Part shown: one piece after another, positions 1 to 25,635 of the stretch | Layout: the number at the start of each line of letters is the position of its first letter | Numbering within the stretch: the first letter of the stretch is position 1 | Origin: a virus | Length of the DNA stretch: 29,894 nt | Virus record (IMG/VR): IMGVR_UViG_3300049846_002206 | Location: 1-29,894 of that record | Direction: 5' to 3' (one strand) | Translations under genes and position numbers: made by a program | Notes under the pieces: generated by a model | The model's input: only the letters and a program-made list of their open reading frames with translations | Told to the model about the DNA's origin: nothing | The model's database searches: none

Positions 1-76
1 AATTATACGAAGAAACAAAATTAAACATCCTGGATTTGTTCCAGCATTTAAAGAACTAGAAATATTATATGCCTAG
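1..76 (+). CDS. Mu gp43-like DNA circulation protein, C-terminal fragment
   Basis: This is the last 24 codons of a gene that begins before the window, read in the frame starting at base 2 and ending at a TAG at 74-76. The visible tail contains HPGFVPAF and ends KELEILYA. That resembles the usual end of Mu gp43 / DNA circularisation N-terminal family proteins (a HP-x-FVPGG-x-PLEVL pattern). It overlaps the next gene by 8 bp, as expected just upstream of a gp44 homologue in Mu-like tails. The identification rests on a short tail plus position. A short frame ending by chance is possible but less likely given the motif. Confidence 0.6.
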   Translation, partial: IIRRNKIKHPGFVPAFKELEILYA

Positions 77-1184
77 CCGTGTTGAATTGAGCGTTGGCGG
101 CAACGTTCATGGCGGCTTCATCAGCGGCGAAGTCAATCTTTCCATGGAGCAAGCTGCGAATGCTTTTTCCATACGCTATGCAGACCGCTGGACGCCCAAA
201 GGCGACGCGTGGCCCATCGAGGCCGGCGACGCATGCAAAATCCTCATTGATGGGGAAACCGTGCTATCCGGATATGTAGACGAGAGCACGGTCCGCTATA
301 ACGATAAGACTCAAGAATTAGAGATTACGGGCAGAAGCAAGACTGCAGACCTGATTGATTGCTCGGCGCATCATAAGCCGGGCCAATGGAAAAATCAGAA
401 GATTGATAAGATATGTGCCGATTTATGTAGTCCATTTGGGATTAGTCTAAATATTAAGTCTGGATTGCTTGGCGATAAGTTCGAGCGATTCTCTGTCGAT
501 ACCGGAGAAACAGTTATCGAAGCCATCGGAAGAGCCGCAAGGCTCCGTGGCCTATTCCCGCTTTGTAATCATGCTGGCGAGTTAGAGCTTAAGCAGGCTG
601 GCACGGAGAGAACTTCGACGCTTTTGCAGTCCGGAATCAATGGCAATATTCTGAGCGCGCAGCGTACCGAGGGCTGGCAGGAAAGATATAGCGATTATTT
701 CTTTCGTGGCCAGCGTGCTGGGAATAACGATGCGTTCGCCGGGCCTGCCGCTCATCTCACTGGAGATGTTCAGGATGAGCTGATGATTGACCGCGGAAGG
801 TATCGACCATTGGTCGTTGTCTCCGGTGGGCAGGATGGATTCAAAGATCTTAAAACGCGCGCTATATGGGAAAAAAACCGCAGAATGGGCAGGAGCGAGC
901 GAATCAACGTGCTTGTCTCCGACTATAAAAACGCCGAAGGCATTTGGAAACCCAACGTGCTAGTTTCTGTGCTGGATTCACGTTTGAGGGTCGGAGATGT
1001 TGATAAAAATAAACCGGCTGAACTTATCATCGTCTCGGTTCGGTTTAGATTCGGACCAGAAGGCTCCGACGGTGGCTATATAACAGAGCTTGAGCTGACT
1101 CATCCCCAGGCTTTTACTTTAGAGCCGGTGCCAAAGAGAAAACGTAAGGCGCCACTTAAAACCTTGCCATCGCCAAACCAATGA
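69..1184 (+). CDS. Mu gp44-like baseplate hub protein
   Basis: A 371-residue protein, close to Mu gp44 (about 379 residues). It is expected to form the trimeric baseplate hub that sits on the spike and connects it to the tail tube (equivalent to T4 gp27 / P2 gpD). The N-terminus (MPSRVELSVGG) and the repeated beta-type segments ('FISGEVNLSMEQAANAFSI', 'ILIDGETVLSGYVDE') match the family start. The C-terminus is lysine/arginine rich (KRKRKAPLK). It overlaps the gp45 start by 4 bp (ATGA), so translation is probably coupled. The call rests on family pattern and on the conserved order gp43-44-45-46-47. No odd features. Confidence 0.85.
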   Translation: MPSRVELSVGGNVHGGFISGEVNLSMEQAANAFSIRYADRWTPKGDAWPIEAGDACKILIDGETVLSGYVDESTVRYNDKTQELEITGRSKTADLIDCSAHHKPGQWKNQKIDKICADLCSPFGISLNIKSGLLGDKFERFSVDTGETVIEAIGRAARLRGLFPLCNHAGELELKQAGTERTSTLLQSGINGNILSAQRTEGWQERYSDYFFRGQRAGNNDAFAGPAAHLTGDVQDELMIDRGRYRPLVVVSGGQDGFKDLKTRAIWEKNRRMGRSERINVLVSDYKNAEGIWKPNVLVSVLDSRLRVGDVDKNKPAELIIVSVRFRFGPEGSDGGYITELELTHPQAFTLEPVPKRKRKAPLKTLPSPNQ

Positions 1185-1714
1185 GAATCTTCCAGAAACT
1201 AGAAGCCAGGATTCTAAACTTGATTGGTCGCGCAATCGTTACGCTTGTCAATGATTCTCCAAAATGCCAGACGCTTCAAATAGAGATTTTCAAAGATGAG
1301 CTTAGGGATGATGTCGAGCACTTCCAACCGTACGGACTTACTTTCAGGCCACCAGTTGGCTCGGAAGTAATCGCTCTTTCGCCGACCGGAATAAAGGATA
1401 ACGTAGTTGCAATATGCGCGACTTATCGAGACCATCGTCCGACAAATATTCAAGCGGGAGAGGGCGGACTATACAACGCGACAGGATTCAAGTTCTTCGT
1501 AAACGCAAGCGACGTTGTAAACATTGCCGAGAAGAACGCAGCAGACTTCGTTGCGCTGGCTGCCAAGGTGGCGACCGAGCTGAGTAATATCCGCAGCTAT
1601 ATTAATTCTCATACGCATACCGGTGTTACTTCTGGCGGCAGTTCAACGGGCGCTCCAGCTTCGCCTATGTCTGCGCCCGGATCTGTGGCGGCCTCCAAAA
1701 CAAAAGCAACCTAA
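1181..1714 (+). CDS. Mu gp45-like baseplate spike (membrane-piercing) protein
   Basis: A 177-residue protein, expected to form the trimeric needle that punctures the outer membrane at the start of injection. The N-terminal part holds the OB-like spike base (roughly residues 20-85). The C-terminal part (about 105-160) would form the narrow beta-helical tip. A His-Thr-His motif at residues 144-146 (SHTHTG) is the HxH arrangement that binds a metal ion near the spike tip in P2 gpV / Mu gp45-type spikes. Beyond it lies a Gly/Ser/Pro/Ala tail with GAPASPMSAP, common in this family. It is flanked by ATGA (upstream) and TAATG (downstream) start-stop overlaps. Confidence 0.85.
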   Translation: MRIFQKLEARILNLIGRAIVTLVNDSPKCQTLQIEIFKDELRDDVEHFQPYGLTFRPPVGSEVIALSPTGIKDNVVAICATYRDHRPTNIQAGEGGLYNATGFKFFVNASDVVNIAEKNAADFVALAAKVATELSNIRSYINSHTHTGVTSGGSSTGAPASPMSAPGSVAASKTKAT

Positions 1715-2163
1715 TGCTAAAACTTGCGTTCGACAAAAATAAGCTTGAAGAGGCCGACTTAGTCATAACAAGCTCCGGTCATTCGGAGGCGGACCCATTA
1801 GAGACCGCGGCGATTATCAGTTTATTCACCAACCGTCGTGCGCTTGACGCTGATAAGATTCCGGTTGGTGTCGATCGCCAAGGATGGTGGGCAGACCCTT
1901 ATCGCGATCAAGATGACCAAGATTCGTCCATCGGCTCTCGATTATGGGTTCTTGAGGGCGCCCCCGATATCGACGCTACGATACAAAAAGCCAAAGAATA
2001 CTGCTCTGAGGCATTTGCATGGTGGTTGCGCGACGGGGTAGCCTCTTCTGTGTCTGTGGACGCTAAAAGGTTGGCCCCTGGCATTCTTGGAATATCTGTG
2101 GAAATTACTAAACCCAATGAAACCTCACCCAGAAAACTAGGGCCTTGGCGCTTCCTTTTATAA
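1714..2163 (+). CDS. Mu gp46-like baseplate protein
   Basis: A 149-residue protein in the place and size range of Mu gp46 (the gp46 / gpW-gp25-like wedge component). It is expected to sit in the inner baseplate wedge and link the hub to gp47. Visible family features are 'DRQGWWADPY' (residues 50-59), the central 'GSRLWVLEG' and the C-terminal 'PNETSPRKLGPWRFLL'. The start is a TAATG overlap with the gp45 stop, and the stop is one base before the gp47 start, so gp44-gp47 read as one translational unit. Confidence 0.85.
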   Translation: MLKLAFDKNKLEEADLVITSSGHSEADPLETAAIISLFTNRRALDADKIPVGVDRQGWWADPYRDQDDQDSSIGSRLWVLEGAPDIDATIQKAKEYCSEAFAWWLRDGVASSVSVDAKRLAPGILGISVEITKPNETSPRKLGPWRFLL

Positions 2164-2164
2164 T

Positions 2165-3229
2165 ATGCCATTTACACGACCAACACTCTCGGACTTAATC
2201 GGAAGATTCAAGTCCGACATGATGTCCCGCACAAATAGCGGGGATGCTGTTCTGCGTAGAACCGTTGAATCGGTTCTCGCGCGTGTTGTGCCAGGTGGCA
2301 TGCATGGCCTATACGGATATATTAATTATTTCAGCAAACAATCTCCGCCGCAGCCTGATAGTGATTTAGAAACGCTTCTCAAATGGAGCGACCTAACCAT
2401 CGACCCGCCTTATATCGATGCTGTATCAGCGACGGGAACGGCTACATTTACCGGCACAGATACGACGTTGATTCCAGCGGGAACCGAGATAATCAATCTC
2501 TCCGGCATCACTTACATTACCAATGCTAATGCCAATATAGCTGGCACTACAGTCAATGTGGCCATTACCGCGGTAGATCCCGGCTCAGCCGGTAACGCGG
2601 AAGCCGGAACCACGTTCACGCTGGTTAATCCAATCTCCGGCATTAACAGCCAAGGCACCTATATCGCATCCGGTGGCGGCGACGCGGAAACTCGTGAGCA
2701 GCTTTATAATCGCATGCAGCGACAACTCAGTACTCCCCCAAGAGCTGGTGGCATCGGAGATTATGAAAACTGGGCGCTCGAAGCATCAACCGAAGTGGCA
2801 AAAGCATGGGAGTTCCCGGGAGAGCCAGAGGTTGGCTATATCACGATTGTAATCGCGACCGCTGACCTTGGGACGCCAAGCGGCGGGCTCATTACAATTG
2901 TTCAGAACTATATAGATTTGAAACGCCCTATCCTCATGGCGGTTCCGATAACCGGAAGCCCGGCCATTGTTAGGGCACCCAATTATCAGACTCTAAACCT
3001 AACTATCCAAGACGCTCTTGCGTCTCAGCACAACGCTATTGAAGCGGGCATTCTTGGATATCTTCGAGCCAAAGCAATCCCTGGAGCCATTGTACAAATG
3101 ATTCTTCTTGAAAATGTCGCACAAGAATTCGACGAGGACGCGACAATTACATCTCCAGCAACGAGCGCAGACCCTGGAGCCTATGGACTTTATAACGCGC
3201 TCAATATCACATGGACGGGTAGCGTATGA
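2165..3229 (+). CDS. Mu gp47-like baseplate protein (Baseplate J family)
   Basis: A 354-residue protein, matching Mu gp47 (about 360) and the Baseplate_J family (P2 gpJ, T4 gp6). It forms the wedge ring that holds fibres. The N-terminus (MPFTRPTLSDLIGRFKSDM) is typical. A central beta region (about 95-170) carries the repeated 'G-T-x-x-x-x-T' pattern followed by 'GGDAETREQLYNRM', the hallmark 'E-T-x-x-x-x-R' segment of the J domain. Its end overlaps the next gene by 4 bp (ATGA). In Mu the next gene is gp48. Here three receptor-type genes intervene. Confidence 0.88.
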   Translation: MPFTRPTLSDLIGRFKSDMMSRTNSGDAVLRRTVESVLARVVPGGMHGLYGYINYFSKQSPPQPDSDLETLLKWSDLTIDPPYIDAVSATGTATFTGTDTTLIPAGTEIINLSGITYITNANANIAGTTVNVAITAVDPGSAGNAEAGTTFTLVNPISGINSQGTYIASGGGDAETREQLYNRMQRQLSTPPRAGGIGDYENWALEASTEVAKAWEFPGEPEVGYITIVIATADLGTPSGGLITIVQNYIDLKRPILMAVPITGSPAIVRAPNYQTLNLTIQDALASQHNAIEAGILGYLRAKAIPGAIVQMILLENVAQEFDEDATITSPATSADPGAYGLYNALNITWTGSV

Positions 3230-4272
3230 GACGAATCACTGGCGCAACAGTAAGCGCCAATCTATTTGGGTCTGGCAAAGACGGCTTTACTGTAGGCAAT
3301 CCACCGAGCCCACCAGCGACCATTGTTAGTGATACTTGGTGCAATGACGTCCAAGAAAATATTTTGAATGTTATTGAGTCGAACGGCATAACGCCGGGCT
3401 CATCAACGACCCAGCTTAAGGATGGCATTGATGCACAAATTAGTACCCGAATAAGCTCAGCGGGTAATCTGGAGTATGTTGGCAATGTTATCGTCGGCGC
3501 TACCTATACGAAGCGTAGTTTATCCATTTCCAGTCAGGAAACCAATGCCAATGGTCTTGCATTTAAAAGCGATGGGAAAAAGTTTTATATTATTGGCAGC
3601 AATAGTGACAGCGTCTATCAATATAGTACGCCAACGGCATGGAATCTAACTTCAGCATCCTATGACTCGATTAGCTTTAACGTTTCTGCTCAAGCCACGA
3701 ATCCGATAGACATAGTATTTAATGCTGCTGGTACCAAATTTTTTGTAATTAACCAGCCATCTGCATTTCAATATTCGACATCTACTCCATGGGTATTGAC
3801 TGGGTCCTCGTATGATGGCGTTAGTTTTAATTTCACCACGCAGACCACGGGGCCGAGATGCGTAGTTTTCAATTCTACGGGCACAAAAATGTTTGTTGCT
3901 TCAGACGTATCTACGCAAAAAATATTTCAATATACCCTTCCAACCCCATATGTGCTTACAGGCGCTACCTATGACTCCGTGAGTCTTACTATTAGTTCCC
4001 AGTCCACGTCACCGGTAGGGATCGCATTTAGCAACAATGGGGATAGAATTTTCGTGGTAGACGGAACAAGTTTTATTGTTTACGAATACAACTTGCCGAC
4101 CAATTATATTTTGACCGGAGGATCCTATAGTGGAAATTCTTTCGATCTTAGCCCCTATTCTGCCCCGACCGGACTGGTTTTTAGCCCAAACGGCGGGAAA
4201 ATGTTTGTGGTTGGCGCAGCGGAAGACAAGATCCATGAATTTTATACTAGTAAAGTTTTCATGCCGTCCTAG
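3226..4272 (+). CDS. tail fibre protein with beta-propeller-like repeats
   Basis: A 348-residue protein. The first ~70 residues include 'TIVSDTWCNDVQENILNVIE', a pattern seen at the start of many phage fibre proteins (T-V-x-A-D-W-L-N-x-V-Q-E-E-I). This is probably the baseplate attachment end. Residues ~88-345 contain five repeats of about 50 residues, each with 'G-[LIV]-x-F-x-x-x-G-x-K-[FM]-[FY]-[IV]', then 'QYST-P-x-x-W-x-L-T' and 'SYD'. This is the signature of a five-bladed beta-propeller of the lactonase / NHL-like kind. Probable role: receptor recognition. It overlaps gp47 by 4 bp and is followed by an AGGAG site for the next gene. Confidence 0.7.
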   Translation: MRRITGATVSANLFGSGKDGFTVGNPPSPPATIVSDTWCNDVQENILNVIESNGITPGSSTTQLKDGIDAQISTRISSAGNLEYVGNVIVGATYTKRSLSISSQETNANGLAFKSDGKKFYIIGSNSDSVYQYSTPTAWNLTSASYDSISFNVSAQATNPIDIVFNAAGTKFFVINQPSAFQYSTSTPWVLTGSSYDGVSFNFTTQTTGPRCVVFNSTGTKMFVASDVSTQKIFQYTLPTPYVLTGATYDSVSLTISSQSTSPVGIAFSNNGDRIFVVDGTSFIVYEYNLPTNYILTGGSYSGNSFDLSPYSAPTGLVFSPNGGKMFVVGAAEDKIHEFYTSKVFMPS

Positions 4273-4283
4273 GAGATTATTAA

Positions 4284-4781
4284 ATGCCATTAACTGAAGG
4301 TACCGTAAAAAGAGCCGTTGTCGCCTCTGGCGATAATTTTAAGATTTTCGACAATGGCGATGGCTTCATCCAGGCCGTTGCTCCTGTCGATGTCAACGGC
4401 GACCCCATTGGTATTGTTACTAACCCTCTCCCTGTTACGCTTAAGACTATCACGACCAACTATGTCAGCGGCTCGAGCGCCGTCTATAGCGCTGTCATTT
4501 CTAATGCAGCATGCATTTTAAGAGAAATTGAAGTAGTGCTGAGTGAAACGGCCACGACCCAAGACCTCTGCTTAATGATTTTCAACTCGACCACGGTTCC
4601 TGCTGATGCGACGGCTCCATTTAGAAGATATAGGGTTCCTGCTCGAGGAATGATGAGCAAGGTATTCCCTACGGGTCTTGTATTAAGCACAGGATGCTCG
4701 GTGGCCTTGAGCACAACTTTTGATAGTAAGACTATCGCTAGCGGCAATAACTCTGGATGGTTCCAGGCGTTGACGGGGTAA
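4284..4781 (+). CDS. small phage structural protein, likely fibre-associated
   Basis: A 165-residue protein I do not recognise as a named family. It is beta-rich with few charged residues. The N-terminal half has 'VAPVDVNGDPIGIVTNPLPV', a pattern common in short virion-associated proteins near fibre genes. The C-terminal half reads like a jelly-roll decoration domain (alternating hydrophobic strands, ending 'SGWFQALTG'). A good AGGAG ribosome site lies 9 bases before the ATG. Its position between two putative receptor-binding genes suggests a fibre tip, collar or chaperone-like adaptor. No enzymatic motif is visible. Confidence 0.5.
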   Translation: MPLTEGTVKRAVVASGDNFKIFDNGDGFIQAVAPVDVNGDPIGIVTNPLPVTLKTITTNYVSGSSAVYSAVISNAACILREIEVVLSETATTQDLCLMIFNSTTVPADATAPFRRYRVPARGMMSKVFPTGLVLSTGCSVALSTTFDSKTIASGNNSGWFQALTG

Positions 4782-4784
4782 CCA

Positions 4785-6239
4785 ATGACAGTATCTGTTG
4801 TTGGCGACTCATTATGGGCCAAGAGAAGCACTGGCCTCAACGAGGGTGTTCCCAATTATTCATGGTCGCCGCTCGATATGCGCCCAATAGCTTATTATAG
4901 AGCTGACAGCGGGATTGTGTTTGATTCTGGCGTGCAGGTAAAGCAATGGCGCGATAGCTCTCCCAATGGTTGGTACATGGAACAGACGGTTCCTGGGGAC
5001 CAGCCGGACCTTATCAATGTGACTGCCGGAGGCAGGACCGTGAAAGGCGTTCAGTTTGTTAAGGCGAGCACGGAGTTCATGCGCGCATTTGAAGCGCGCT
5101 CTCCGGGAAGCTCCGAAATAACCGTTTATGCGATAGCGAGATTGGACATTGCGGATTCTGGCGGTCAATTCTTTGATGTTGGTAATGATGCCGGGGCAGT
5201 TTTTGTTGGTGCATACCCAAGGAGCGTTTTGGGATGCTACGCGCAGCTTGGCGAATCGGTCGACAGCATCGGTCGGTCTGGCGAGATTCACTTGCTACTA
5301 TTAACAGCCGGTCTTTCTGGATCTAAGTATTTCAATTCGTATATTGATAATTATTCTGTGTTTACGACATCGGCTCCTGTTGATAATTTATTGACAAGCG
5401 ATGCGCCCACCATGGGCGCGGTCTGGAATCTCAGCGTCCCGGGCGCATTCCAGTATTCGGATTGTACTATTTTAGAGGCTGGATATTATAATCGGGCCAT
5501 CTCTCAGACGGAGCGCGCTAGGCTGAACGACTATGCGAGAGTAAGATATTATACGACGGATACTGCTCCCTGGTCTCCAAAGGATTTGGCGCCAGCGATG
5601 TGGTGCAGGTCGGATGCTGGCATAACGACAACCAGCAGTCGCGTTAGCGGCTGGGCAGATATATCTGGGAATGGCTGGAATTTTGAGCAAACCGTTTCTG
5701 GAAATAGACCGGTGATGACAAACGCTTTTGGTTTTAATGCGGTGCATTTTACGTCTGCAAACACGGAATGCCTTCAGAGTTTTGAAAGTAGAGCGTTCAC
5801 TAATGCCGAAGGATTCTTTTGGGTTGTATGCTCTGCTGGTAGCGTTGGGTCCCCGGACCCTCAGGTGATATTTTCTAGATTAGAAAGTTCCGGAATGGAG
5901 ATATATACGGACCCATCTTCTAATCTTGGCTTTAGAATAGATGCCCAAAATGTCGAAGATACAACCTCAATCAATGGCGTATTGCTCGCGGCTTCCGCTG
6001 AGTACAGCGTATCCGGCAATACATTCTTTGGCTTCAAAAACAACACACAGGTCGCATCTGGCACTGATACGCTTGGCTCCGCGAGCAGCAAACTGACGGT
6101 TGGCGCTCGACTTACTACCGGGACATTGAGCAACGGCGCAAGCGTTGATGTTTTTGAATGCGGCTTTGTCCCTAGAACGCTAACCGTTCCAGAAAAAGCG
6201 AAGCTGCAAACTTATTTCAATAAGCGCTATGGCATATGA
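4785..6239 (+). CDS. tandem LamG/concanavalin-like lectin tail protein
   Basis: A 484-residue protein built from two copies of one ~230-residue unit. Copy 1 begins near residue 30 ('DMRPIAYYRADSGI ... WRDSSPNGWYMEQTV') and copy 2 near residue 267 ('DLAPAMWCRSDAGI ... WADISGNGWNFEQTV'). Each copy ends with a Tyr/Phe-rich strand and a short helix ('QTERARLNDYARVRYY' and 'VPEKAKLQTYFNKRYG'). This is the layout of concanavalin-A/LamG-like sugar-binding domains of phage tails. It overlaps gp48 by 4 bp (ATGA). Probable role: binding surface sugars. The duplication gives two binding sites per chain. No hydrolase residues are evident, though a depolymerase role cannot be excluded. Confidence 0.6.
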   Translation: MTVSVVGDSLWAKRSTGLNEGVPNYSWSPLDMRPIAYYRADSGIVFDSGVQVKQWRDSSPNGWYMEQTVPGDQPDLINVTAGGRTVKGVQFVKASTEFMRAFEARSPGSSEITVYAIARLDIADSGGQFFDVGNDAGAVFVGAYPRSVLGCYAQLGESVDSIGRSGEIHLLLLTAGLSGSKYFNSYIDNYSVFTTSAPVDNLLTSDAPTMGAVWNLSVPGAFQYSDCTILEAGYYNRAISQTERARLNDYARVRYYTTDTAPWSPKDLAPAMWCRSDAGITTTSSRVSGWADISGNGWNFEQTVSGNRPVMTNAFGFNAVHFTSANTECLQSFESRAFTNAEGFFWVVCSAGSVGSPDPQVIFSRLESSGMEIYTDPSSNLGFRIDAQNVEDTTSINGVLLAASAEYSVSGNTFFGFKNNTQVASGTDTLGSASSKLTVGARLTTGTLSNGASVDVFECGFVPRTLTVPEKAKLQTYFNKRYGI

Positions 6240-6826
6240 CATTATTGTTATTACTCGACGCAGAGCAAACATCCGTCGATACCTCGCTTCTTGATTCGAC
6301 AATCATAAGATATCGCAATCAACTGCTAGAATTGCTTCCTCCTGGTCTCGCATGGACCAGAATACAAACGTCTAACCTATCTAAGTTATTAGAGGTTTGC
6401 GCTGCTGAAATGGCGCGTATTGACCTAAGGCTATCAGACTTGGGACTGGAGGTTATTCCGTCCACGGCCGACGAAATGCTCCCAGAATGGGAAAGCCTAT
6501 TCGGATTACCGGATGATTGCATTGGGATATCCGGCTCAATAACTGAACGCCGGCAGAACGTTGTCACTAAGCTAAACAGCAAGAAGGCCCAATCCTTTGC
6601 CGACTTCCAATCAATAGCAACATCGCTTGGTTACGGGGCAATCACGATTACCGGATATAAGCCATTCAAGGTTGGTCTTAGCGCGGTCGGAGATCCACTG
6701 ACCAATGAACCATGGGTATTTGCAAAGGTAATCCATGTCGGCACCGGACCTGACAATACAAAGCTCACCTGTGTTTTCCGCAACCATGTCCATGCCCATG
6801 GTTGGTTAGATTTCGTGTTCACATGA
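6236..6826 (+). CDS. Mu gp48-like baseplate/tail protein (YmfQ, DUF2313)
   Basis: A 196-residue protein. 'IIRYRNQLLELLPPGLAWTR' is the typical opening of the YmfQ/DUF2313 family, followed by the E-x-x-R-I-D-x-R helix ('AAEMARIDLRLSDL') and 'LPEWESLFGLPDDC', a near-diagnostic segment. The C-terminus (FRNHVHAHGWLDFVFT) also matches the family's 'H-x-H-x-x-L-x-F' ending. In Mu, gp48 directly follows gp47 and is needed to load fibres. Here it follows the fibre block instead. It is the last clear baseplate gene in the window. Confidence 0.85.
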   Translation: MTLLLLLDAEQTSVDTSLLDSTIIRYRNQLLELLPPGLAWTRIQTSNLSKLLEVCAAEMARIDLRLSDLGLEVIPSTADEMLPEWESLFGLPDDCIGISGSITERRQNVVTKLNSKKAQSFADFQSIATSLGYGAITITGYKPFKVGLSAVGDPLTNEPWVFAKVIHVGTGPDNTKLTCVFRNHVHAHGWLDFVFT

Positions 6827-6833
6827 AAAATAT

Positions 6834-7244
6834 ATGCTTGAAACCGTCTCGAACTTTATCTTCGAGCACATACCCGCCATCGCCACCTGGCTGTTCTTCA
6901 CCTATCTAACGGTTGTTCTTGATACTCGCGTTTTCGATAAAGCCACCATCGATGAACTTGGTGACCATAAAGCATTGCATTGGATTCGTAAGTTCTTGCC
7001 CATACTTATTATAGTCCTCTCTGGCTCAATAGGATTCTTCTGGAATGATCCAGAATCTTTAGGCTATGACAGAAATGCGAGCGTCGCATATTTCGCAATC
7101 GCCGGCGCCCTGGCCGAGCCATCGTGGGCTATTTTAAGCGCTATTGCTAAAAAACGAGGGTTTAAAGTATGGCTGCCAGGCGGTTCTTTGCCGCCGCCAC
7201 CGATAGAGAAAAAACCTCCGGATAACAAAGATGCCAAGCAGTAA
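6834..7244 (+). CDS. holin-like three-helix membrane protein
   Basis: A 136-residue protein with three predicted membrane segments: about 13-29 ('IPAIATWLFFTYLTVVL'), 53-70 ('KFLPILIIVLSGSIGFFW') and 82-104 ('ASVAYFAIAGALAEPSWAI'). A basic patch follows, then a proline-rich charged tail (PPPPIEKKPPD). Size, topology and position (just before a coiled-coil membrane protein and an amidase) fit a holin that permeabilises the inner membrane for lysis. I see no match to a named holin class, so a different phage membrane role is possible. It overlaps the next gene by 14 bp. Confidence 0.5.
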   Translation: MLETVSNFIFEHIPAIATWLFFTYLTVVLDTRVFDKATIDELGDHKALHWIRKFLPILIIVLSGSIGFFWNDPESLGYDRNASVAYFAIAGALAEPSWAILSAIAKKRGFKVWLPGGSLPPPPIEKKPPDNKDAKQ

Positions 7245-11832: not shown

Positions 11833-12038
11833 GGCCTGATGCTTTCTAGACCGAGAATCTGTCGGTCTGACATGATAGTATGCATGTATTGGTCGATTAA
11901 CTCAACAATATCTTCTGCCGTTGGTCGTCTACCCTCATGACCCTCGATATCTTGAATCCTTCTCTTGGCTAGCATCTTCATTTCGTATGCGGCCTGTTCC
12001 TTTGCACTGTATCTCAGAGTCATTGCTTCTTTTCCCAT
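11829..12038 (-). CDS. small helical unknown protein
   Basis: A 69-residue protein starting MGKEAMTLRYSAKEQ. The start at 12038 is preferred over longer readings (12059 or 12107) because GGGAGG lies 8 bases upstream and the ATG overlaps the previous stop as TAATG. It has two amphipathic helices ('AAYEMKMLAKRRIQDI' and 'AEDIVELIDQYMHTIM'). Function unknown. Lying just upstream of erf suggests an early DNA-metabolism accessory. Confidence 0.6.
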   Translation of the reverse strand: MGKEAMTLRYSAKEQAAYEMKMLAKRRIQDIEGHEGRRPTAEDIVELIDQYMHTIMSDRQILGLESIRP

Positions 12039-12361
12039 TAGAAACCTCCCATTAGACATTCGCAAACCCTTCGACCGCGTCCGAAACAATTTCCGCACGT
12101 GGCCCATTCGTATTCCTTATTCGCTATCTTACCGTCCCCTTCACATCCAAAACATTCATTGATGCCCGAGCCATTGCAATCATGACAGGTCGGCATCATA
12201 CCCGTCTCTTGAGCAATGATATACGCAGCCCTCGCCCTACCCAAATATTCTGCCCGCTGCTCGCCCTTACAATTTTCAGCGAGCGCTTCCCATTCAAGGG
12301 CTCTTTCGATCATGAACAGCGCAGGATGAGGCTTTCTAACAAGACGTAGCATTGTAGTCAT
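12038..12361 (-). CDS. DnaJ-type zinc-knuckle protein
   Basis: A 107-residue protein with four CxxC-type knuckles: C59-C62 with the 'CNGSG' turn, C70-C73 ('CFGCEGDG'), C89-C92 ('CGNCFGRG') and C100-C102. This is the arrangement of the central zinc domain of DnaJ without the J domain. The N-terminal half is helical ('ERALEWEALAENCKGEQRAEYLGRARAAY'). Such proteins are common in phage early operons, with proposed roles in protein or DNA interaction. It begins in an ATGA overlap after GGGGGAG. Confidence 0.7.
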   Translation of the reverse strand: MTTMLRLVRKPHPALFMIERALEWEALAENCKGEQRAEYLGRARAAYIIAQETGMMPTCHDCNGSGINECFGCEGDGKIANKEYEWATCGNCFGRGRRVCECLMGGF

Positions 12362-12564
12362 TTCTCCCCCGTGCTTACTTCAATCGATGAGGCGTAATCA
12401 GACACAATCTTTACCGAGTCAAAGTCCTGCTTTTGTACAAAGGCTTTGATTAGATAATTGCACGCCTCGGCCTGCCCCAATGCAAAATCGATTGACCCTT
12501 GTCGTTTGATCGCATTAATAATCTGAGCCGCCTCTTGCTTGATTGGATCGTTCTTGTGTTCCAT
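12358..12564 (-). CDS. first gene of leftward early operon, unknown
   Basis: A 68-residue soluble helical protein (MEHKNDPIKQEAAQIINAIK...). The start at 12564 is preferred because it lies directly at the predicted transcription start of the leftward promoter. The longer reading to 12612 would cross that promoter. There is no ribosome-binding site, so the mRNA is probably leaderless. It ends in an ATGA overlap with the zinc-knuckle gene. Function unknown. Confidence 0.6.
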   Translation of the reverse strand: MEHKNDPIKQEAAQIINAIKRQGSIDFALGQAEACNYLIKAFVQKQDFDSVKIVSDYASSIEVSTGEK

Positions 12565-12571
12565 GGATAAC

Positions 12572-12600
12572 AATGTATTGCCTATCGGCCATTGCGTCAA
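12572..12600 (-). promoter_or_regulatory. leftward early promoter
   Basis: Read on the minus strand: TTGACG (12600-12595), a 17-base spacer, TACATT (12577-12572). Predicted start is about 12565, one base from the ATG of the first leftward gene. Operator O1 lies inside the spacer. Confidence 0.6.
12577..12592. promoter_or_regulatory. operator O1
   Basis: ATTGCCTATCGGCCAT matches operator O2 at 13 of 16 positions. It fills the spacer of the leftward promoter and touches its -10 box, so binding would block that promoter. The probable ligand is the 76-residue HTH regulator encoded at 12701. A weaker partial match (GCCTATAA on the minus strand) lies around 12616-12623. Confidence 0.55.
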
Positions 12601-12664
12601 GTAATAAATCAATTTATTTTATAGGCGTAAAAAGGGGGTTAATTGTGGTTGCCCGCTAAAGGTC

Positions 12665-12693
12665 TTGACATCTGGTCAGCGATTGCCTATAAG
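12665..12693 (+). promoter_or_regulatory. rightward promoter of the regulator gene
   Basis: TTGACA (12665-12670), exactly 17 bases, TATAAG (12688-12693). This is a near-consensus sigma70-type promoter. The predicted start is about 12700, next to the ATG at 12701. The -10 box lies inside operator O2. Confidence 0.75.
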
Positions 12694-12697
12694 CAAT
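12682..12697. promoter_or_regulatory. operator O2
   Basis: ATTGCCTATAAGCAAT is a 16-bp near-perfect palindrome with one mismatched pair, of the kind bound by Cro/CI-type dimers. It covers the -10 box of the rightward promoter, so the regulator would repress its own gene. Confidence 0.65.
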
Positions 12698-12700
12698 GGT

Positions 12701-12931
12701 ATGGCTTTACTGGGTGAACGAATCAAACGGCTGAGGGTTGGGGCGAAGAAGACCATGAGGGCGTTTTCTATTGAAACTGGGATTGGCGCTGAGACGGTAT
12801 GGAAGTACGAGACGGGCAAGATAGAGGACCCCGGGGTTCATAACTTCCATAAAATGGCCAAGTCATTCGGAATCTCAATGGATGAGCTTTATCTGGGTTC
12901 GAAAAAAAGCCTGCGCCCTCCCAAAAAATAG
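12701..12931 (+). CDS. Cro/CI-type HTH transcriptional regulator
   Basis: A 76-residue protein that is almost entirely an XRE/Cro-CI helix-turn-helix domain: 'LGERIKRLRVGAKKTMRAF' (helices 1-2), 'ETGIGAETVWKYETGK' (recognition helix region) and 'FHKMAKSFGISMDELY' (helices 4-5). No peptidase, dimerisation or RecA-cleavage domain follows, so it looks more like Cro or a minimal repressor than CI. The ATG at 12701 fits the domain start. An upstream TTG at 12665 is the -35 box and is rejected. No ribosome-binding site precedes it. It probably binds O1 and O2 and controls both early directions. Confidence 0.82.
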   Translation: MALLGERIKRLRVGAKKTMRAFSIETGIGAETVWKYETGKIEDPGVHNFHKMAKSFGISMDELYLGSKKSLRPPKK

Positions 12932-16360: not shown

Positions 16361-19300
16361 ATGAAACTAACCGATAGCGCTGGCAAACGCGTAACATCAA
16401 TTGCCAAGAGCGGTTCGGCTCAGATTACTGGCGATGCGACTCTTACTGCTGGCTCTAACATAACGCTGACGCAGTCCGGTCAGGATATTTCGATTGCTTC
16501 GACTGCCTCGGGCTCCATTGGAGTTTCTGATGAGGGAAGCAGTTTAACTTCTGCCGTCACTTCATTTAATTTTGTTGGCGCCGGCGTTACTGCGACCGGC
16601 GGCCCTGCAATTACTGTTACAATCCCCGGTTCCGGAAGTGCGACGATTACGACCCAGGAAGAGGGCTCTACTCTTTCAAGCACAGTCACGACTCTCAATT
16701 TTGTTGGAGCCGCATATACTGCATCCGGGGCTGGCTCGACCACGACGCTTACGAGCGATGGTGATGTTGATGCGATTGCGAATCTAGCGGCGACCGCTGG
16801 AATGCTTTCGAGAACTGGCGCTAATGCGTTTGCCGCAAGAACGCTTCAGGCCGGTTCTACAAAAATATCGATTTCAAATCCCACAGGGTCTGCTGGAGAC
16901 CCAAGCTTCGATGCAGTCGAAGCAAACTTTACACTTAATAATATCGGCGGGACTCTTGGCGCTACCAAGGGAGGCACTGGGCTATCGACTCTCGGCGCGG
17001 CCAACACAGTTCTTAATGTTAATAACGCAGGCACTGCGATCGAGTCCGATAAACTTGTTGCTGCGAATTGCGGGACGACGACGGGCACAGGCGATACTTT
17101 TGTTTTCGCTACTTCTCCTGTACTGGTGACTCCAAATATTGGGACACCGAGCGCTGGAACATTAACAAGTTGCACGGGGTTACCGATAAGCACTGGGGTA
17201 AGCGGCCTCGCGGCTGGCATAGCGACATTTCTGGGAACACCCAGCAGCGCAAATCTTATTTCTGCGGTTACAGATGAGACGGGGACGGGCTCCCTCGTCT
17301 TCGCGTCAAGCCCGGCTTTGACCGGCACGCCGACGGCTCCTACTGCTGCCAATGGCACCAATACTACTCAGGTTGCGACAACTGCGTACGTTCTTGCGAC
17401 GCGCCATGATCAGCTCGCTGCTCCGACAGCAAGCGTATCTTGGAACAGCCAGAGGATTACCAGTCTTTTAGACCCCGCCGCCGCCCAGGACGCGGCCACC
17501 AAAAATTATGTTGATAGCGTTGCCCAAGGCCTCGATGCAAAGGGCTCAGTCCGAGCAGCAACAACTACCTCGGGAACACTCGCAAGTTCATTTCAGAACG
17601 CGTCCATAATTGATGGGATTACATTATCGACTGGCGATAGAATACTCATCAAGAATCAGTCTTCTGCATCTGAAAATGGCATCTATACTGTAAATTCTTC
17701 TGGTGCCCCGACCCGCGCTACGGATATGGATATCTGGGGAGAAGTCCCGGGCGCATTTGTTTTTGTTGAGACGGGCACAGCCAATGCCGATACTGGCTGG
17801 GTTTGTACTGCAGATGCCGGCGGGACATTAAATACCACATCCATTACATGGGCCCAGTTTTCTGGAGCCGGCACTTATACCGCAGGAACCGGGCTAACAC
17901 TAACTGGCTCTCAGTTCGCGATTGATTCAACGGTTGTTACTCTCACTGGCAGCCAGACTCTTACTAATAAGACCCTCACATCTCCGACGCTAACTACTCC
18001 AGTTCTTGGCACGCCTTCTTCTGGGACACTGACGAACTGCACTGGATTGCCGATTAGCACAGGCGTGAGTGGGTTAGCGGCAAACGTTGCTACGTTTTTA
18101 GCGACCCCATCTTCGGCGAATCTCATCTCTGCGATGACCGATGAAACAGGGACCGGGGCCTGTGTATTTGCGACAAGCCCAACACTGGTGACGCCGCTTC
18201 TCGGCACGCCGACGTCAGGCACGCTTACAAATTGCACGGGTCTTCCGGTTAGCACTGGTATTTCTGGTCTTGGGACGGGCGTAGCCACGTTTTTAGCGAC
18301 CCCGAGTAGCGCTAATCTAATCGCTGCCGTGACTGATGAGACCGGCAGCGGCGCTCTTGTTTTTGCCACGAGTCCCACGCTTGTTACGCCGGCGCTTGGT
18401 ACGCCAACCTCAGGAACGCTAACCAGTTGCACTGGATTGCCGGTTAGTACTGGGATAAGCGGCCTTGGAACTGGAGTTGCGACCTTCCTAGCTACGCCAT
18501 CGTCCGCTAATCTCATCAGCGCAGTTACTGATGAAACAGGAACCGGTGCTTTAGTTTTTGGAACTTCGCCAAGTCTATTTGGCAATATTCTTCTCGACAA
18601 TACAGGAACCGCTTCCGAGCTTCGTTTCCGAGAACCGTCCGCATCAGGCTCAAACTATACCGCATTCAAGGCTCAGGCTCAGGCAGCCGATCTTACCTAT
18701 ACGCTACCCCCAAGCATTGTTACGAATGGATATCTAAAAACTGATGCTACAGGTGGCCTGACATGGGCAACCGTTGCCGGCGGAAGCGCGCTTATTGTTC
18801 AGAAGGATGACGCTGACGTTGATACCGCATGCGCTACGCTTGATTTTCAAGATTCTGATGTCTCGGGGCTGGTAACGAGTTCTCCATCCGGGGAGGCCAA
18901 TGTCTTCCTAAATAAATACGTCGCCCTTGGCGGAAGAACGAGCACAAGCGGCCAGCAAGTCACTGGGATGTTTAGCCATATCCCGGCCTCTCTTCCGGCG
19001 GGCGTTCCGTATTATGAAGTTTTTGATGAGGCGACCACGAATCTCCTCGTTAATCCGCGCTTTGAGACTGCGACGACCGGTGCAGCCGCTCTCGGCGCGA
19101 ATGCGACCATATCCAGGATAACATCGAGCCCGTCTGCGCCATTCAGTGCAACGGCATGCCTCAAGGTTATAGTCTCACCTGCTGCCGTTAATCAGGGAGT
19201 AATATGGTCCGGGATAACAGTTTCGCCTAGCACCGCGTATACATTTTCGTTTTGGATATTGGGCAACGCAGGGCTAGAGGCGCTTAAGGTTGTAAGCGAT

Positions 19301-20893
19301 GGCAATAACTCGGTCGCAGTCGGTGAAGTATTTACCTGTCAAAAATCTACTTCCGCATGGAAGAGATATGAATACAGATTTACGACTGGCGCTTCTGATA
19401 CAGCAACTGATTTGTGGATAGCGAGCAACGACGCGACAAACCCAGTCACGTATTATGTTTGGGGAATTCAATTTGAGCAAAAGGCCAAAGCCACATCGCT
19501 TTGCACTGGCGCATGGGGTAAAGGTTTTGCGTGGACGGGTACCGCTGACAATAGTACGAGCACGAGGGATGCGGGCTATCATCTACTCGGCGCAATGGTT
19601 GCAGGCACGGTATCTCCGCAGGTAATCTATCGAGATGGCGGGTTTTTTGAGGGCAGGCAAAAGTTTATTCTTCCAGGTCTGAGCGACGGAAGCGACGGCT
19701 CGCATCTTCTTACTATTACCGGAGACCTGCCAACATATCAGACATTTGGCGGCGACAGCGGAATCGTAAAAATTGAAAATTCCGGCGACGGAACCGCCCT
19801 CGTTATAGAGTCAAAAACAACCGGTGACATGGGACTTGTTGTAAGCGTGCCGAATCTCACCAGCGGCACCGGGTTCGGCGTCTTCATGAACTCGACGCTG
19901 AGCGCGCTGACGTCAGGGGCGAAGCTCTTTAGCCTTGGCGATAAATCCGGCAGCAACCACGTTGTCTTTGGTAAGACGGATTTTAGTCATGGCGCTGCCA
20001 CCATACCATTGGCCAAGAAGACTATTTTCTATGGTGGCGGAGCATACGCGCTATTAGCATCGGGTGCGGGAACGGTATCGACCACGAACGGCGTGAATAC
20101 GATTTCTGGCACCGGTACGAACTTTTTGTCCAGAGTCGGATCTGTAATTAAATTTAATAATGGTCAGATACTTACGCTTTCTTCGGCTTCATCCGATACG
20201 GCTGGCGTTCTCAGTGGGACGGCTAACGCCGGAAGGACGAACGAGTCTTGGCTGTACGGATCTCCCCAGTTTTCTCCCGGCATTATGCACATGGAGAACA
20301 GCGGCGGCGGGCTATCAGCCGACCATGCAGCTTCTGGCGTAGCGAATTTCACGACAGCGCTATGGCCGGACGCAAATGGTCGTTGGCGATCGATGCGTAG
20401 CGCGACATCGAATGCGCTGGCAGCTCCGACTGCGGATACCGATGGCAACCTGATATCGGAAGCTATCATTGCGATCAAGGCCAGCGATCAGACCAAAACA
20501 ACAGATACTACGGCAGCCGCCGACTCTGCTTTAGTGGTAGCGCTTGCCGCAAACAAATCATACAACATTACAGGTTCAATCTTTTTTACGGCGAACACGG
20601 CGCCGGACATTAAATATGGATTTTCTTGGCCTTCTGGTGCAACCGCGAAAATTCTTGGCTCAGCCATGGAAAGCGGTTCCACGAACAAGAGCAACGATAT
20701 TTTTGTCACTTCTGCTGCTACGATTACGTGGAGCACGACAACAGGCGCCAACAATTGTATAATTGTCCAAGGAACAATAACAACGTCTTCTACCGCGGGA
20801 AATCTTAGCTTCATTTGGGCGCAAAATACTTCAAGCGCTAGCGCGACAACGGTTCAATCTCAGTCAATTCTGAAAGTTGAGCCAACATCATGA
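16361..20893 (+). CDS. giant modular tail fibre/virion protein
   Basis: A 1510-residue protein, Thr/Ser/Ala/Gly rich. Order of parts: two 'EEGS-x-L-S-x-x-V-T-x-x-N-F-V-G-A' repeats (about 55-135); one copy of a 65-residue repeat (252-316); '[13 protein letters not shown] ... TAYV' linker; a domain with '[17 protein letters not shown]' and '[11 protein letters not shown]' (about 425-495), a common fibre module; three tandem 65-residue repeats (541-735); a carbohydrate-binding-module-like jelly roll from 'NLLVNPRFE' (about 893-1070); and a C-terminal beta domain with '[13 protein letters not shown]' (about 1415) often seen at virion protein ends. No peptidase or chaperone tail seen. The start has a weak ribosome site. 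It overlaps the next gene by 4 bp. Location upstream of the terminase is unusual. Confidence 0.7.
17114..17308 (+). repeat. dispersed copy (R1) of the 195-bp fibre repeat
   Basis: Encodes 65 residues of the pattern SP-x-L-x-TP-x-x-GTP-x-x-GTLT-x-CTGLP-x-STG-x-SG, ending in [14 protein letters not shown]. It is followed by a different linker, 672 bp before the tandem copies. Confidence 0.85.
17981..18565 (+). repeat. three tandem 195-bp fibre repeats (R2-R4)
   Basis: Copies start at 17981, 18176 and 18371, exactly 195 bp apart, and the next unit starts but breaks off at 18566 (SPSLFGN). The peptides are nearly identical while the DNA is heavily divergent at third codon positions. Confidence 0.9.
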
Positions 20894-21672
20894 CGCTTTA
20901 TGATGAGATGTTGTTCAAGGTTACGGCGATTGATTTCGCCGGAGAGCTTTTCGACGGTGAGCATGTTTCCATGGGTAGCAGCCGTGCCGATGGCTCGATG
21001 AAGGGAATCCCCTATAGACAGTCTGGTCGAGATTCCTGTTGTCATATTCATTGGTGCAACGACAATACTGGGTATCATTGGGAAGCTTGGCCTAATTATA
21101 CAGAGCATGGGATCCAAATATCGCTTGATTTGATGGATGGCGACACAGTTCTCAAGAATTGGCGTCCTGAGCTGATAAGAGGGGCGGACCTGTCGGACGG
21201 CGCCGCTGTCCATAGCCGGTTCAGAAGATTTTCTATTTCATTAATGCAAGAGATTGATGCCATTAATAAGCAAAATCTTGATCCAGATAAATATCTAGAA
21301 GCACTTAAAAATATTCCATATGATGCGCGCGTTGCCAGGTCTTTTGTTGCTGGCTCTTCGGTCGCCTTCGTCAATACCCAATGGTGTGAAGCGCTTAGGG
21401 TTACTAATGCCCGTAGCCCATTCATCTTTGAGCCTTGGTCTAATTTTACCGCTCCAGGGTCAACCATGGCGCTTGATATCTACGACAAGGATTTGAATCT
21501 AGTATATCAACAAGAACCCAGATATGTAACGAACCCCGAGGTGGGCGATGGCGATTCTTTATACAGGATCGGAGAGCAATGTATTTTGCGTCTGGCCGAT
21601 GAAGTTGAGCGTTGCAACCAAGAATTAATCGAAGAAACAGGAGAGGTATTGCCATGGCTAGATACTCAGTAG
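20890..21672 (+). CDS. internally duplicated protein of unknown function
   Basis: A 260-residue protein made of two related halves about 116 residues apart. Half A has W64-x-x-W67-x-N69-Y-T and LDLMDGD (79-85); half B has F180-x-x-W183-x-N185-F-T and LDIYDKD (195-201), with equal spacing (W to D is 13 in both), then a similar helix ending ('MQEIDAIN' / 'ADEVERCN'). I do not recognise the family. Soluble, no signal. The overlap with the fibre stop (ATGA) suggests a fibre partner, such as an assembly chaperone or virion component. Confidence 0.6.
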
Positions 21673-21836
21673 ATGAAAAATATTTGAATGCTGCGCTTAT
21701 GACTATTCAGCAGCTTGCAATGAAGGAAGTGCAACCGATTGTCGATGCGCTTCGCGCTGACGCGCAGAAGATTGAAGAAACATCTATCATTGCTCCGTCT
21801 AATGGTAAATCTGAACAAATCGAAGCTAGTGCATAA
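21654..21836 (+). CDS. 60-residue unknown protein
   Basis: A short helical protein starting [16 protein letters not shown]. The start at 21654 is chosen because GGAGAGG lies just upstream. It overlaps the previous gene by 19 bp. One long helix ('LNAALMTIQQLAMKEVQPIVDALRADAQKIEE', in parts) suggests a small oligomeric virion or chaperone protein. Function unknown. Confidence 0.55.
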   Translation: MARYSVDEKYLNAALMTIQQLAMKEVQPIVDALRADAQKIEETSIIAPSNGKSEQIEASA

Positions 21837-21841
21837 TTAAT

Positions 21842-22948
21842 GTGTCTAAAACTCTTATCCAAAACGGCGCGACCGAGCGTATCGGCGTTAAGCTTGTAGA
21901 CGCCTCGGGCTCGCCGATTACCGGTCAATCTGCGAATATTGCTATATCCATTCGCAATACGGCCAACGGGAACTACTGGTCCGGATCGGCGTTTGGAGCT
22001 TCATTCGCGACGGTAAACCCAACCGAAATCAGCTCATCCAATGAGCCCGGCGCATACGATTACGCCTTCACGTCCAATGTCAATAATATTCTATGCGAGA
22101 TAAATGCGAGGACAACGGCCGCAGGAGCATCGGTAAAAGAGTGGGGGCCGGATTATCTTCAGGTCGGCGGACTTCCTGGTAATTTTGGCGATCTCAGCAT
22201 TGCTCCATCGACCGGGATTGTTAGTATTGCTCAGCAGAGCATAGCGGATTCATTAAAATTGGCGCCGGTGGCTGGAGCGCCAGCGTTTGGATCTGTATAT
22301 TCGAGCCTTACAAGTATCGGCAATTCGCAGAATGATTTGAACAATTCTCTTACGGACTTAGATGCGGCGATTACAGATCAATTCCATACGACCTGGGGAA
22401 CAACGAATGCTGGCCAGGTAAAAAACTTATTAATACTATTCAATACGATTTCCGGCGGAGGGGCAGACATAAACGCTATCCGGGACGCAGTATGGAATGC
22501 GGTTCTGTCAAACTATGTAACAGCGGGCACAGCCGGAGCGGCGCTTGGCGCTGTTGACGTATCGGCGTTAGAGCCAATTGTTAATAATCTTATCGAGGAA
22601 ATAGCCAAAATTGCTTTGCCTATTCTTACTGCAGCGCAGATTAGAGGGAAAATGTGGGTCGGACAAAAAGGTGATCTGATTAAATTGCCGATGTACCGCG
22701 ACGGGCAACTTGAGACCGTCACCCCTGATACGGGTACAGTTAAGATGCGATTCGAGAAAATTGGAACCGACGAAGCGGATGTTATTGTCAACGCTACCTT
22801 CTCTGGTGGCATGATTAGTTATACGACTATTGTCGGCGATGGAACTCGGGAATCTGCTGGTAGATGGCGGCAGCAGGGCTCTGCGGAGTTTAGCGGTAAA
22901 ATAAGGTACACCGAAGATGAAATCGTCGATGTATTTGTTCCAGTATGA
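21842..22948 (+). CDS. BppU-like phage structural protein
   Basis: A 368-residue protein from a GTG start. The N-terminal ~105 residues form a beta domain ('IGVKLVDASGSPITGQSANIAI'), reminiscent of phage decoration domains. The middle contains 'INAIRDAVWNAVLSNYVTAGTAGAAL', the I-W-D-A-x-x-x-x-H-T-T-A-G-T-x-G pattern found in phage tail proteins. The C-terminal ~95 residues ('GDLIKLPMYRDGQLETV', 'VKMRFEKIG', 'YTEDEIVDVFVPV') resemble the N-terminal domain of BppU/DUF2479 baseplate proteins. Probable role: virion attachment or fibre linker. Overall match to one named family is not certain. Confidence 0.55.
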   Translation: MSKTLIQNGATERIGVKLVDASGSPITGQSANIAISIRNTANGNYWSGSAFGASFATVNPTEISSSNEPGAYDYAFTSNVNNILCEINARTTAAGASVKEWGPDYLQVGGLPGNFGDLSIAPSTGIVSIAQQSIADSLKLAPVAGAPAFGSVYSSLTSIGNSQNDLNNSLTDLDAAITDQFHTTWGTTNAGQVKNLLILFNTISGGGADINAIRDAVWNAVLSNYVTAGTAGAALGAVDVSALEPIVNNLIEEIAKIALPILTAAQIRGKMWVGQKGDLIKLPMYRDGQLETVTPDTGTVKMRFEKIGTDEADVIVNATFSGGMISYTTIVGDGTRESAGRWRQQGSAEFSGKIRYTEDEIVDVFVPV

Positions 22949-22957
22949 TCGCCATAC

Positions 22958-23266
22958 ATGAAGCAAGATTCAGAAGCAAAGAGGCTCAGGGACCTAGATA
23001 GGCACCTTGGTGAGCTTATCGATAAAAGAGACCTGCTAGAGCTACAAGAAAAGGCGTATGAGCATCATGTGGCGGATTTAGAAAAGCAGTATTCAAACGG
23101 ATTCATAATTCGGTATCAACGCGACGTCCTCTACGAGGATTATATTAATAAATTGCGCTTGCTCGGAGAATCCATGAGGGCCTTAGATCGAGAGATCCAG
23201 CTGGTACGCTCAGATGCTGCAGAAATCATGTCCCAAATAAAGGACAAACAAGAGCCTAGCGCATGA
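22958..23266 (+). CDS. coiled-coil unknown protein
   Basis: A 102-residue, almost wholly helical and charged protein ('KRLRDLDRHLGELIDKRDLLELQEK', in parts; 'AHHVADLEKQYS'-like middle). Heptad-like Leu spacing suggests a coiled coil. No ribosome site is obvious. The end overlaps the ParB-like gene by 4 bp (ATGA). Role unknown. Confidence 0.55.
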   Translation: MKQDSEAKRLRDLDRHLGELIDKRDLLELQEKAYEHHVADLEKQYSNGFIIRYQRDVLYEDYINKLRLLGESMRALDREIQLVRSDAAEIMSQIKDKQEPSA

Positions 23267-23814
23267 AGGTTTCCGAGATTCAAAAAGAAATTGATGAATC
23301 TGGGTGCCAGACGGCGGAAATATCGGTTCTTGTGCCGAATAAAAAGAATCCGCGTAAAAACGCATATGCCGCTAAAAGGCTCGGCAAGGCCATATCCAAA
23401 ATAGGATTCGGCGCTCCTATTATCATTCAGAAACGAACCAATCGGGTAATTGCAGGGCATACTAGGCTGATTGCGGCCAAAGAGCTTGGCCTAAAAAGAG
23501 TCCCAGTTCGCATCCTTGATGTCGATGACAAGCGTGCCCAGGCCATGTCTCTGTCCGATAATAGGCTTGGGGAAATAGCCGAGTGGGATCTAGCGTTACT
23601 AGCTAAGCAGCTAGAAGAGTTTACTCTAGAAGAGAATGATGACTTGGGCTTCGATGCTCAGTTCCTTGAAAACATGGCCAAAGAGATTCCGGATTTTGGA
23701 CCTATCGAATCTTCAGAGAATAAAGAGTTCAAGGCTTGCGAGAATTGCCAGAAGTTGCAAGAGCAACTCAATCTCGCATTTATGAGAATTCAGGAATTAG
23801 AATCATCCAAATAG
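23263..23814 (+). CDS. ParB/sulfiredoxin-fold protein
   Basis: A 183-residue protein with a ParB N-terminal domain: 'NKKNPRKN' (26-33), 'IIIQKRTNRVIAGHTRLIA' (53-71) with the GHTR motif at 65-68, and 'RAQAMSLSDNRLGEIAEWD' (91-109). In phages this domain often stands next to terminase genes, frequently fused to a DNA methylase. No methylase follows here. The C-terminal part has a CxxC ('ACENCQKLQEQL') and a short coiled coil. Possible roles: nuclease, DNA-binding partner of packaging, or a CTP-using switch. No helix-turn-helix is seen after the domain. Confidence 0.8.
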   Translation: MKVSEIQKEIDESGCQTAEISVLVPNKKNPRKNAYAAKRLGKAISKIGFGAPIIIQKRTNRVIAGHTRLIAAKELGLKRVPVRILDVDDKRAQAMSLSDNRLGEIAEWDLALLAKQLEEFTLEENDDLGFDAQFLENMAKEIPDFGPIESSENKEFKACENCQKLQEQLNLAFMRIQELESSK

Positions 23815-23858
23815 GCTAGACGCGTTCGGCTTATGCGCGCGCGAACCTTATACAGCAT

Positions 23859-24338
23859 ATGGCGAAATTTACAGAAGAGACGTCCAAGCGAATTTTGGAG
23901 GCACTAAAAACTACGGGTCTTGTGAGAGCGGCTGAGCTTGCTGGGATTCATCGGGACACGTTCCGCAGATGGCATCGCCAGGGAGAACAGGACATAAGGG
24001 ATAATAAGAAGACCGAGCTTGCGGACTTCGTGCGAGAGATTAGCAAGGTCACCGCCAATCGGTATGCAATCTTAGAATCTAGTATTCTTGTGGCCGCGAC
24101 CAAAGACCGGGATTGGCGAGCTGGAGCTTGGTTATTGGAGCGAAGCTTGCCTGATGAGTTTGGCCGCAAAGACATGCTGAAGATTCAGCTAGATGGTGCT
24201 ATTCAGGGACTTCTTGACGCGGTAGAGCCGCATATGACAAGAGATGGATACGCAGAACTACTCTCAGCGCTTGCTAAGGTCCAAGGGGATACCTTGGAAC
24301 AAATGGATAGCTCAGAAACAGAGCCGGCTATCCAGTAA
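23859..24338 (+). CDS. terminase small subunit
   Basis: A 159-residue protein with an N-terminal HTH ('TSKRILEALKTTGLVRAAELAGIHRDTFRRW', in parts), which recognises the packaging start, and helical middle ('WRAGAWLLERSLPDEFGRK'), a pattern typical of small terminases that guide the large subunit. The C-terminus (SSETEPAIQ) is acidic and would contact the large subunit. It overlaps the large-subunit gene by 95 bp, an unusually long overlap. Confidence 0.8.
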   Translation: MAKFTEETSKRILEALKTTGLVRAAELAGIHRDTFRRWHRQGEQDIRDNKKTELADFVREISKVTANRYAILESSILVAATKDRDWRAGAWLLERSLPDEFGRKDMLKIQLDGAIQGLLDAVEPHMTRDGYAELLSALAKVQGDTLEQMDSSETEPAIQ

Positions 24339-25632: not shown

Positions 25633-25635
25633 AGC

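What the first reader, a model, noticed from the sequence alone, without database searches (positions are those of the whole stretch)
12564..12701. Two divergent promoters that each appear to make a leaderless mRNA
The rightward promoter (TTGACA-17-TATAAG) predicts a start near 12700, and the regulator ATG is at 12701. The leftward promoter (TTGACG-17-TACATT) predicts a start near 12565, and the first ATG is at 12564. Neither gene has a ribosome-binding site, while most other genes in both arms do. Lambda cI from PRM is the known case of a leaderless repressor mRNA; having both divergent early genes leaderless would be unusual. If real, translation of both would depend on 5'-AUG recognition by 70S ribosomes, a possible physiological switch.
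Basis: partly seen in the sequence, partly recalled or inferred. Interest (0 to 1): 0.62.

Follow-up and report, generated by a model that had tools for sequence, protein, structure and literature searches.

The report
Divergent phage promoters abutting start codons
In an uncultured phage, the two outward-facing promoters of the control region sit so close to the first AUG of each gene that both messages probably begin at the start codon with no leader, an uncommon layout that has already been shown experimentally in the phage PY54.

Summary
The anatomy is confirmed. TTGACA-17-TATAAG ends 7 nt before ATG 12701. TTGACG-17-TACATT ends 7 nt before ATG 12564. Among all 1105 ATGs of the window, these two rank first and second for a sigma70-type promoter 5-9 nt upstream. 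The favoured start is the A of the AUG on both sides (a pyrimidine-purine step at position 8). The same scoring recovers lambda cI and PY54 cro as leaderless and lambda cro as leadered. The window is the best of 202 divergent ORF pairs for having the layout on both sides.

This points to a 76-aa XRE-type regulator repressing itself and the leftward operon.

Two claims weaken. Lack of a Shine-Dalgarno site is common here: only 12 of 36 genes have a good one, although 8 of 13 neighbouring genes do. A divergent phage pair with both mRNAs leaderless is already known: PY54 cI and cro, by RACE. The "physiological switch" is speculation. No close relatives were found, so conservation could not be tested. 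Verdict: a probable new member of a known kind, of modest interest.

The parts
12701..12931 (+). 76-aa XRE/HTH_19 regulator, first gene of the rightward transcript; no Shine-Dalgarno site
   Evidence: Pfam HTH_19 E=2.2e-9; PHROG transcriptional regulator/repressor families; five-helix model similar to 434 Cro, P22 c2 N-domain, C.AhdI and C.BclI; SD dG -0.7
12665..12693 (+). rightward sigma70-type promoter TTGACA-17-TATAAG; -10 ends 7 nt before ATG 12701
   Evidence: score 12.5, rank 1 of 1105 ATGs
12358..12564 (-). 68-aa orphan ORF, first gene of the leftward operon; no Shine-Dalgarno site; its stop overlaps the ATG of the next gene (12361), which has a strong one
   Evidence: no family match; low-confidence three-helix model
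12572..12600 (-). leftward sigma70-type promoter TTGACG-17-TACATT; -10 ends 7 nt before ATG 12564
   Evidence: score 11.4, rank 2 of 1105 ATGs
12577..12592 (.). putative operator OL, ATTGCCTATCGGCCAT, in the spacer and -10 edge of the leftward promoter (centre at -20.5)
   Evidence: 2 mismatches to the palindrome ATTGCCTATAGGCAAT; 0 of 2000 shuffles reach the paired-dyad score
12682..12697 (.). putative operator OR, ATTGCCTATAAGCAAT, over the rightward -10 (centre at -11.5); 105 bp from OL, 10.0 helical turns
   Evidence: 1 mismatch to the palindrome
12038..12361 (-). second gene of the leftward operon, overlapping the 68-aa ORF at ATGA, with a strong Shine-Dalgarno site (dG -8.6)

Best explanation
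This is the control region between the divergent early operons of a phage. Two strong sigma70-type promoters point outward. Each has its -10 element 7 nt from the first AUG, so RNA polymerase most likely starts on the A of that AUG, or within 3 nt of it. Both first genes are then translated from leaderless mRNA (70S binding to a 5'-terminal AUG), while downstream cistrons use Shine-Dalgarno sites or overlapping stop-start junctions. The rightward first gene encodes a small XRE-type DNA-binding protein. It most likely dimerises on two near-identical 16-bp palindromes, one on each promoter, and represses both itself and the leftward operon, which contains the Erf-type annealing protein gene. The 105-bp (10-turn) spacing would permit co-operative binding through a loop. 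Shown here: positions, scores, operators, missing Shine-Dalgarno sites, protein family. Inferred: start sites, leaderless translation, repression, looping. The missing leaders may simply follow from compact packing of promoter and operator against the coding sequence, and may keep expression of the regulator low.
For: Promoter positions rank 1 and 2 of 1105 ATGs. The only purine 5-9 nt after the leftward -10 is the A of ATG 12564. On the right, the T12700-A12701 step lies at position 8, next to the modal position 7 (PMC5730371). Controls scored the same way: lambda cI gap 6, PY54 cro gap 6 (both leaderless), lambda cro gap 24 (leadered). Operators on both promoters. HTH regulator. Weak SD energies at both starts. 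The best alternative promoters score 4-9 bits against 11-13, and none supplies a Shine-Dalgarno site.
Against: No transcript data. The host is unknown, so its sigma factor and tolerance of leaderless mRNA are unknown. Position 8 is one base past the modal position 7. G12698/G12699 could give a 2-3 nt leader. An out-of-frame ATG lies at 12696. No relative preserves the region, so conservation is untested. The leftward ORF has no homologue and might not be the first gene. Many genes here lack Shine-Dalgarno sites, so their absence is weak evidence. PY54 cI, which is leaderless by RACE, shows no recognisable promoter at the expected gap, so promoter position does not fully predict the 5' end.
Confidence: 0.66

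Rival explanations
1. Only the rightward (regulator) mRNA is leaderless. The leftward gene is read from a longer transcript started further upstream and is translated without a Shine-Dalgarno site (S1/AU-rich-dependent initiation).
For: Weaker leftward candidates exist: TTAACC-15-TAAAAT ending 51 nt and TTTACG-17-TTTATT ending 38 nt before the ATG. The upstream leader would be AU-rich. One leaderless regulator is the common case: lambda cI, PaaR2, SetR. In Vibrio phage K242, whose repressor is the nearest named relative, the divergent partner has a leader-length gap (best -10 ends 18 nt upstream).
Against: The proximal promoter scores much higher (11.4 against 8.4 and 7.7). It carries the operator, which an unused promoter would not need.
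Confidence: 0.17
2. Both transcripts carry very short leaders of 2-5 nt rather than none, because the start is chosen at G12698/G12699 (right) or A12568 (left). Translation is then leaderless-like but less efficient.
For: Start selection varies by a few bases with discriminator and nucleotide supply (PMC5730371). G12699 is at position 6.
Against: Pyrimidine-purine steps at position 8 coincide with the A of the AUG on both sides. A12568 is only 4 nt from the -10.
Confidence: 0.12
3. Coincidence: the host uses other promoter signals, or the two ATGs are not the true starts.
For: Promoter-like matches in the region are at the chance level by a simple consensus count. The host is unknown.
Against: Rank 1 and 2 of 1105 ATGs. 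Operators sit on both promoters (0 of 2000 shuffles). The XRE domain begins at residue 5 of the ATG-started protein. Upstream in-frame starts are only TTGs (and one ATT) lying inside or just above the promoters.
Confidence: 0.05

Closest known systems
Phage PY54 immB region (cI/cro), PMC4488713
   Same: Divergent regulator/early pair in a phage; both mRNAs begin at the AUG by RACE; a 16-bp palindromic operator between the genes
   Different: In PY54 both genes encode repressors (CI and Cro) and Cro binds a single site. Here only one gene is a recognisable regulator, the other first gene is an orphan, there is an operator on each promoter, and no sequence relationship was found
Lambda cI from PRM
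   Same: Leaderless repressor mRNA; the -10 ends 6 nt before the ATG by the same scoring (7 nt here)
   Different: Lambda cro has a leader and a Shine-Dalgarno site (gap 24). Here both sides are leaderless-like. The regulator is 76 aa, too short to hold a LexA-type peptidase domain
C (controller) proteins of type II restriction-modification systems
   Same: Short single-domain XRE regulators with leaderless, self-regulated transcripts (PMC4824078, PMC5333194); fold match to C.AhdI and C.BclI
   Different: No restriction or modification gene partner among the neighbouring genes identified; operators lie on the promoters (repression) with no site placed for activation
PaaR2 (E. coli O157:H7 prophage) and SetR (SXT/R391)
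   Same: Leaderless mRNA for a phage-type regulator facing a divergent operon
   Different: Only the regulator is reported leaderless there

Membership tests
Leaderless mRNA (both genes) | 5' end at the start codon or within a few nt | not testable with these tools
   Needs 5'-end mapping. The predicted start is position 8 after each -10, the A of AUG
Leaderless mRNA (both genes) | No Shine-Dalgarno site | tested here: met
   dG -0.7 and -1.5 kcal/mol, background median -2.1
Leaderless mRNA (both genes) | Start codon is AUG | tested here: met
Lambda-type immunity switch | Two divergent genes that both encode DNA-binding repressors (CI/Cro) | tested here: not met
   The leftward 68-aa product matches no HTH family
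Lambda-type immunity switch | Symmetric operators overlapping divergent promoters | tested here: met
   Two 16-bp palindromes, 0 of 2000 shuffles
XRE-family regulator | HTH_3/HTH_19-type five-helix domain | tested here: met
   HTH_19 E=2.2e-9 above its cut-off; five helices modelled
Restriction-modification C protein | Linked restriction and modification genes | tested here: not met
   None among the genes scanned near the regulator

The most novel reading that the evidence does not exclude
Leaderless initiation on both sides is a deliberate translational switch. Conditions that favour 70S/5'-AUG initiation would raise the regulator and the first lytic gene together, so that their balance depends on the host's translation state as well as on operator binding.
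Probability: 0.06. Interest if true: 0.6.

Novelty: new member of a known kind. Interest (0 to 1): 0.3.

Why it matters
If confirmed, it would be a second, unrelated example (after PY54) of a divergent phage control region with both mRNAs leaderless. That would suggest that packing operator and promoter against the start codon, rather than a special use of translation, drives leaderless phage regulators. It also gives a compact 136-bp test fragment.

Tried and rejected
Conservation in relatives: no match to the 1.8-kb region in phage records. No relatives of the regulator, the leftward ORF, terminase, portal or the HNH gene in IMG/VR. The Erf gene gave 57 IMG/VR loci and 4 genome loci. The 57 IMG/VR loci were checked: none holds the leftward ORF and only weak HTH matches turned up. 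The single relative of the gene at 12941 is not in the same context. Host assignment failed: nearest portal, terminase and ParB-like matches are 22-40% identical and scattered over unrelated hosts. A third operator was sought and not found. 5' mRNA structure is unremarkable. A link to the disputed MazF leaderless-translation hypothesis was considered and dropped for lack of evidence.

Full report
Setting. The window is a 29,894-base virus record held as one contig: terminase and portal, an Erf-type annealing protein, amidase, RusA. It has no close relative in the phage records or IMG/VR collections searched. Host unknown.

Observation. The distance from the end of the -10 to the A of the ATG is 7 nt on each side. 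A consensus count of promoter-like sites in the region is not above chance (that tool also rejects TATAAG by rule). The informative test is position relative to start codons. With a sigma70 weight matrix and spacer term, ATG 12701 and ATG 12564 rank first and second of 1105 ATGs for a promoter ending 5-9 nt upstream. At the exact 7-nt gap, 1 and 3 of about 59,700 positions reach these scores. The matrix frequencies are my approximation of the E. coli compendium, so ranks matter more than bits.

Start-site prediction. Bacterial polymerase prefers position 7 after the -10 (PMC5730371); that a purine preceded by a pyrimidine is preferred is general knowledge. On the left the only purine 5-9 nt downstream is A12564 (C12565-A12564 step). 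On the right T12700-A12701 lies at position 8; G12698 and G12699 are weaker alternatives that would leave 2-3 nt of leader.

Controls. The same scoring gives lambda cI a gap of 6, PY54 cro a gap of 6 (both leaderless by experiment), and lambda cro a gap of 24 (leadered). PY54 cI, leaderless by RACE, shows no canonical promoter at that gap, so the method has false negatives.

Ribosome-binding sites. Duplex energy with the 16S tail is -0.7 (right) and -1.5 (left), inside the background. Of 36 likely genes only 12 reach -4.5, though 8 of 13 neighbours between 8594 and 14943 do.

Operators. The intergenic region contains two 16-bp near-palindromes, ATTGCCTATCGGCCAT (12577-12592) and ATTGCCTATAAGCAAT (12682-12697). 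They are the only matches within 3 mismatches of ATTGCCTATAGGCAAT in the window. No shuffle of 2000 reached the combined repeat-and-dyad score. One sits in the leftward spacer and -10 edge, the other on the rightward -10. Centres are 105 bp apart, 10.0 turns at 10.5 bp. That supports both promoters being real and regulated together.

Regulator. The 76-aa protein is an XRE/HTH_19 domain with little else. The model (pLDDT 78) resembles 434 Cro, SinR, P22 c2 and C.AhdI/C.BclI, but only at Foldseek E of 0.002 or worse, as expected for such a short common fold. The leftward 68-aa product is an orphan with a low-confidence helical model.

How unusual. Across 202 divergent ORF pairs from the loci collected here, the window is the best for both sides together and the only pair with both scores at 10 or more; none of the 78 pairs from the Erf, genome and K242 loci reached 8 on both sides. 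The other loci were fetched for having such a promoter, so the sample is not random. Of those ATGs, 64% open ORFs of 40 aa or more, against 24% of random ATGs.

Known precedent. PY54 cI and cro both yield leaderless mRNA by RACE (PMC4488713). Leaderless regulators are also reported for C proteins (PMC4824078, PMC2997769, PMC5333194), PaaR2 (PMC8630535) and SetR (PMC4542580). So this is a probable new member of a known arrangement. The translational-switch idea has no specific support here.

Noticed in passing
IMG/VR sample L064-L183: Consensus sigma70 promoters with ATG 6-7 nt after the -10 are widespread in viral contigs and often open long ORFs, including non-regulatory genes (thymidylate-synthase-like, primase-like and others, judged by eye); 64% open ORFs of 40 aa or more against 24% of random ATGs.
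   Followed up: partly
window 69-7244 and 16361-28606: Most genes of the structural arm lack a Shine-Dalgarno site, so the host may use little SD-led initiation.
   Followed up: partly
L063 (Vibrio phage K242) 2970-3003: The nearest named relative of the regulator (35% identity) has an extended -10 (TGGTAATAT) ending 6 nt before its ATG, so it may be leaderless too; its divergent partner is not.
   Followed up: partly
window 23263-23814: ParB-like/nuclease-domain protein next to the terminase small subunit gene.
   Followed up: no
window 12601-12632: AT-rich stretch directly upstream of the leftward -35 that could act as an UP element.
   Followed up: no
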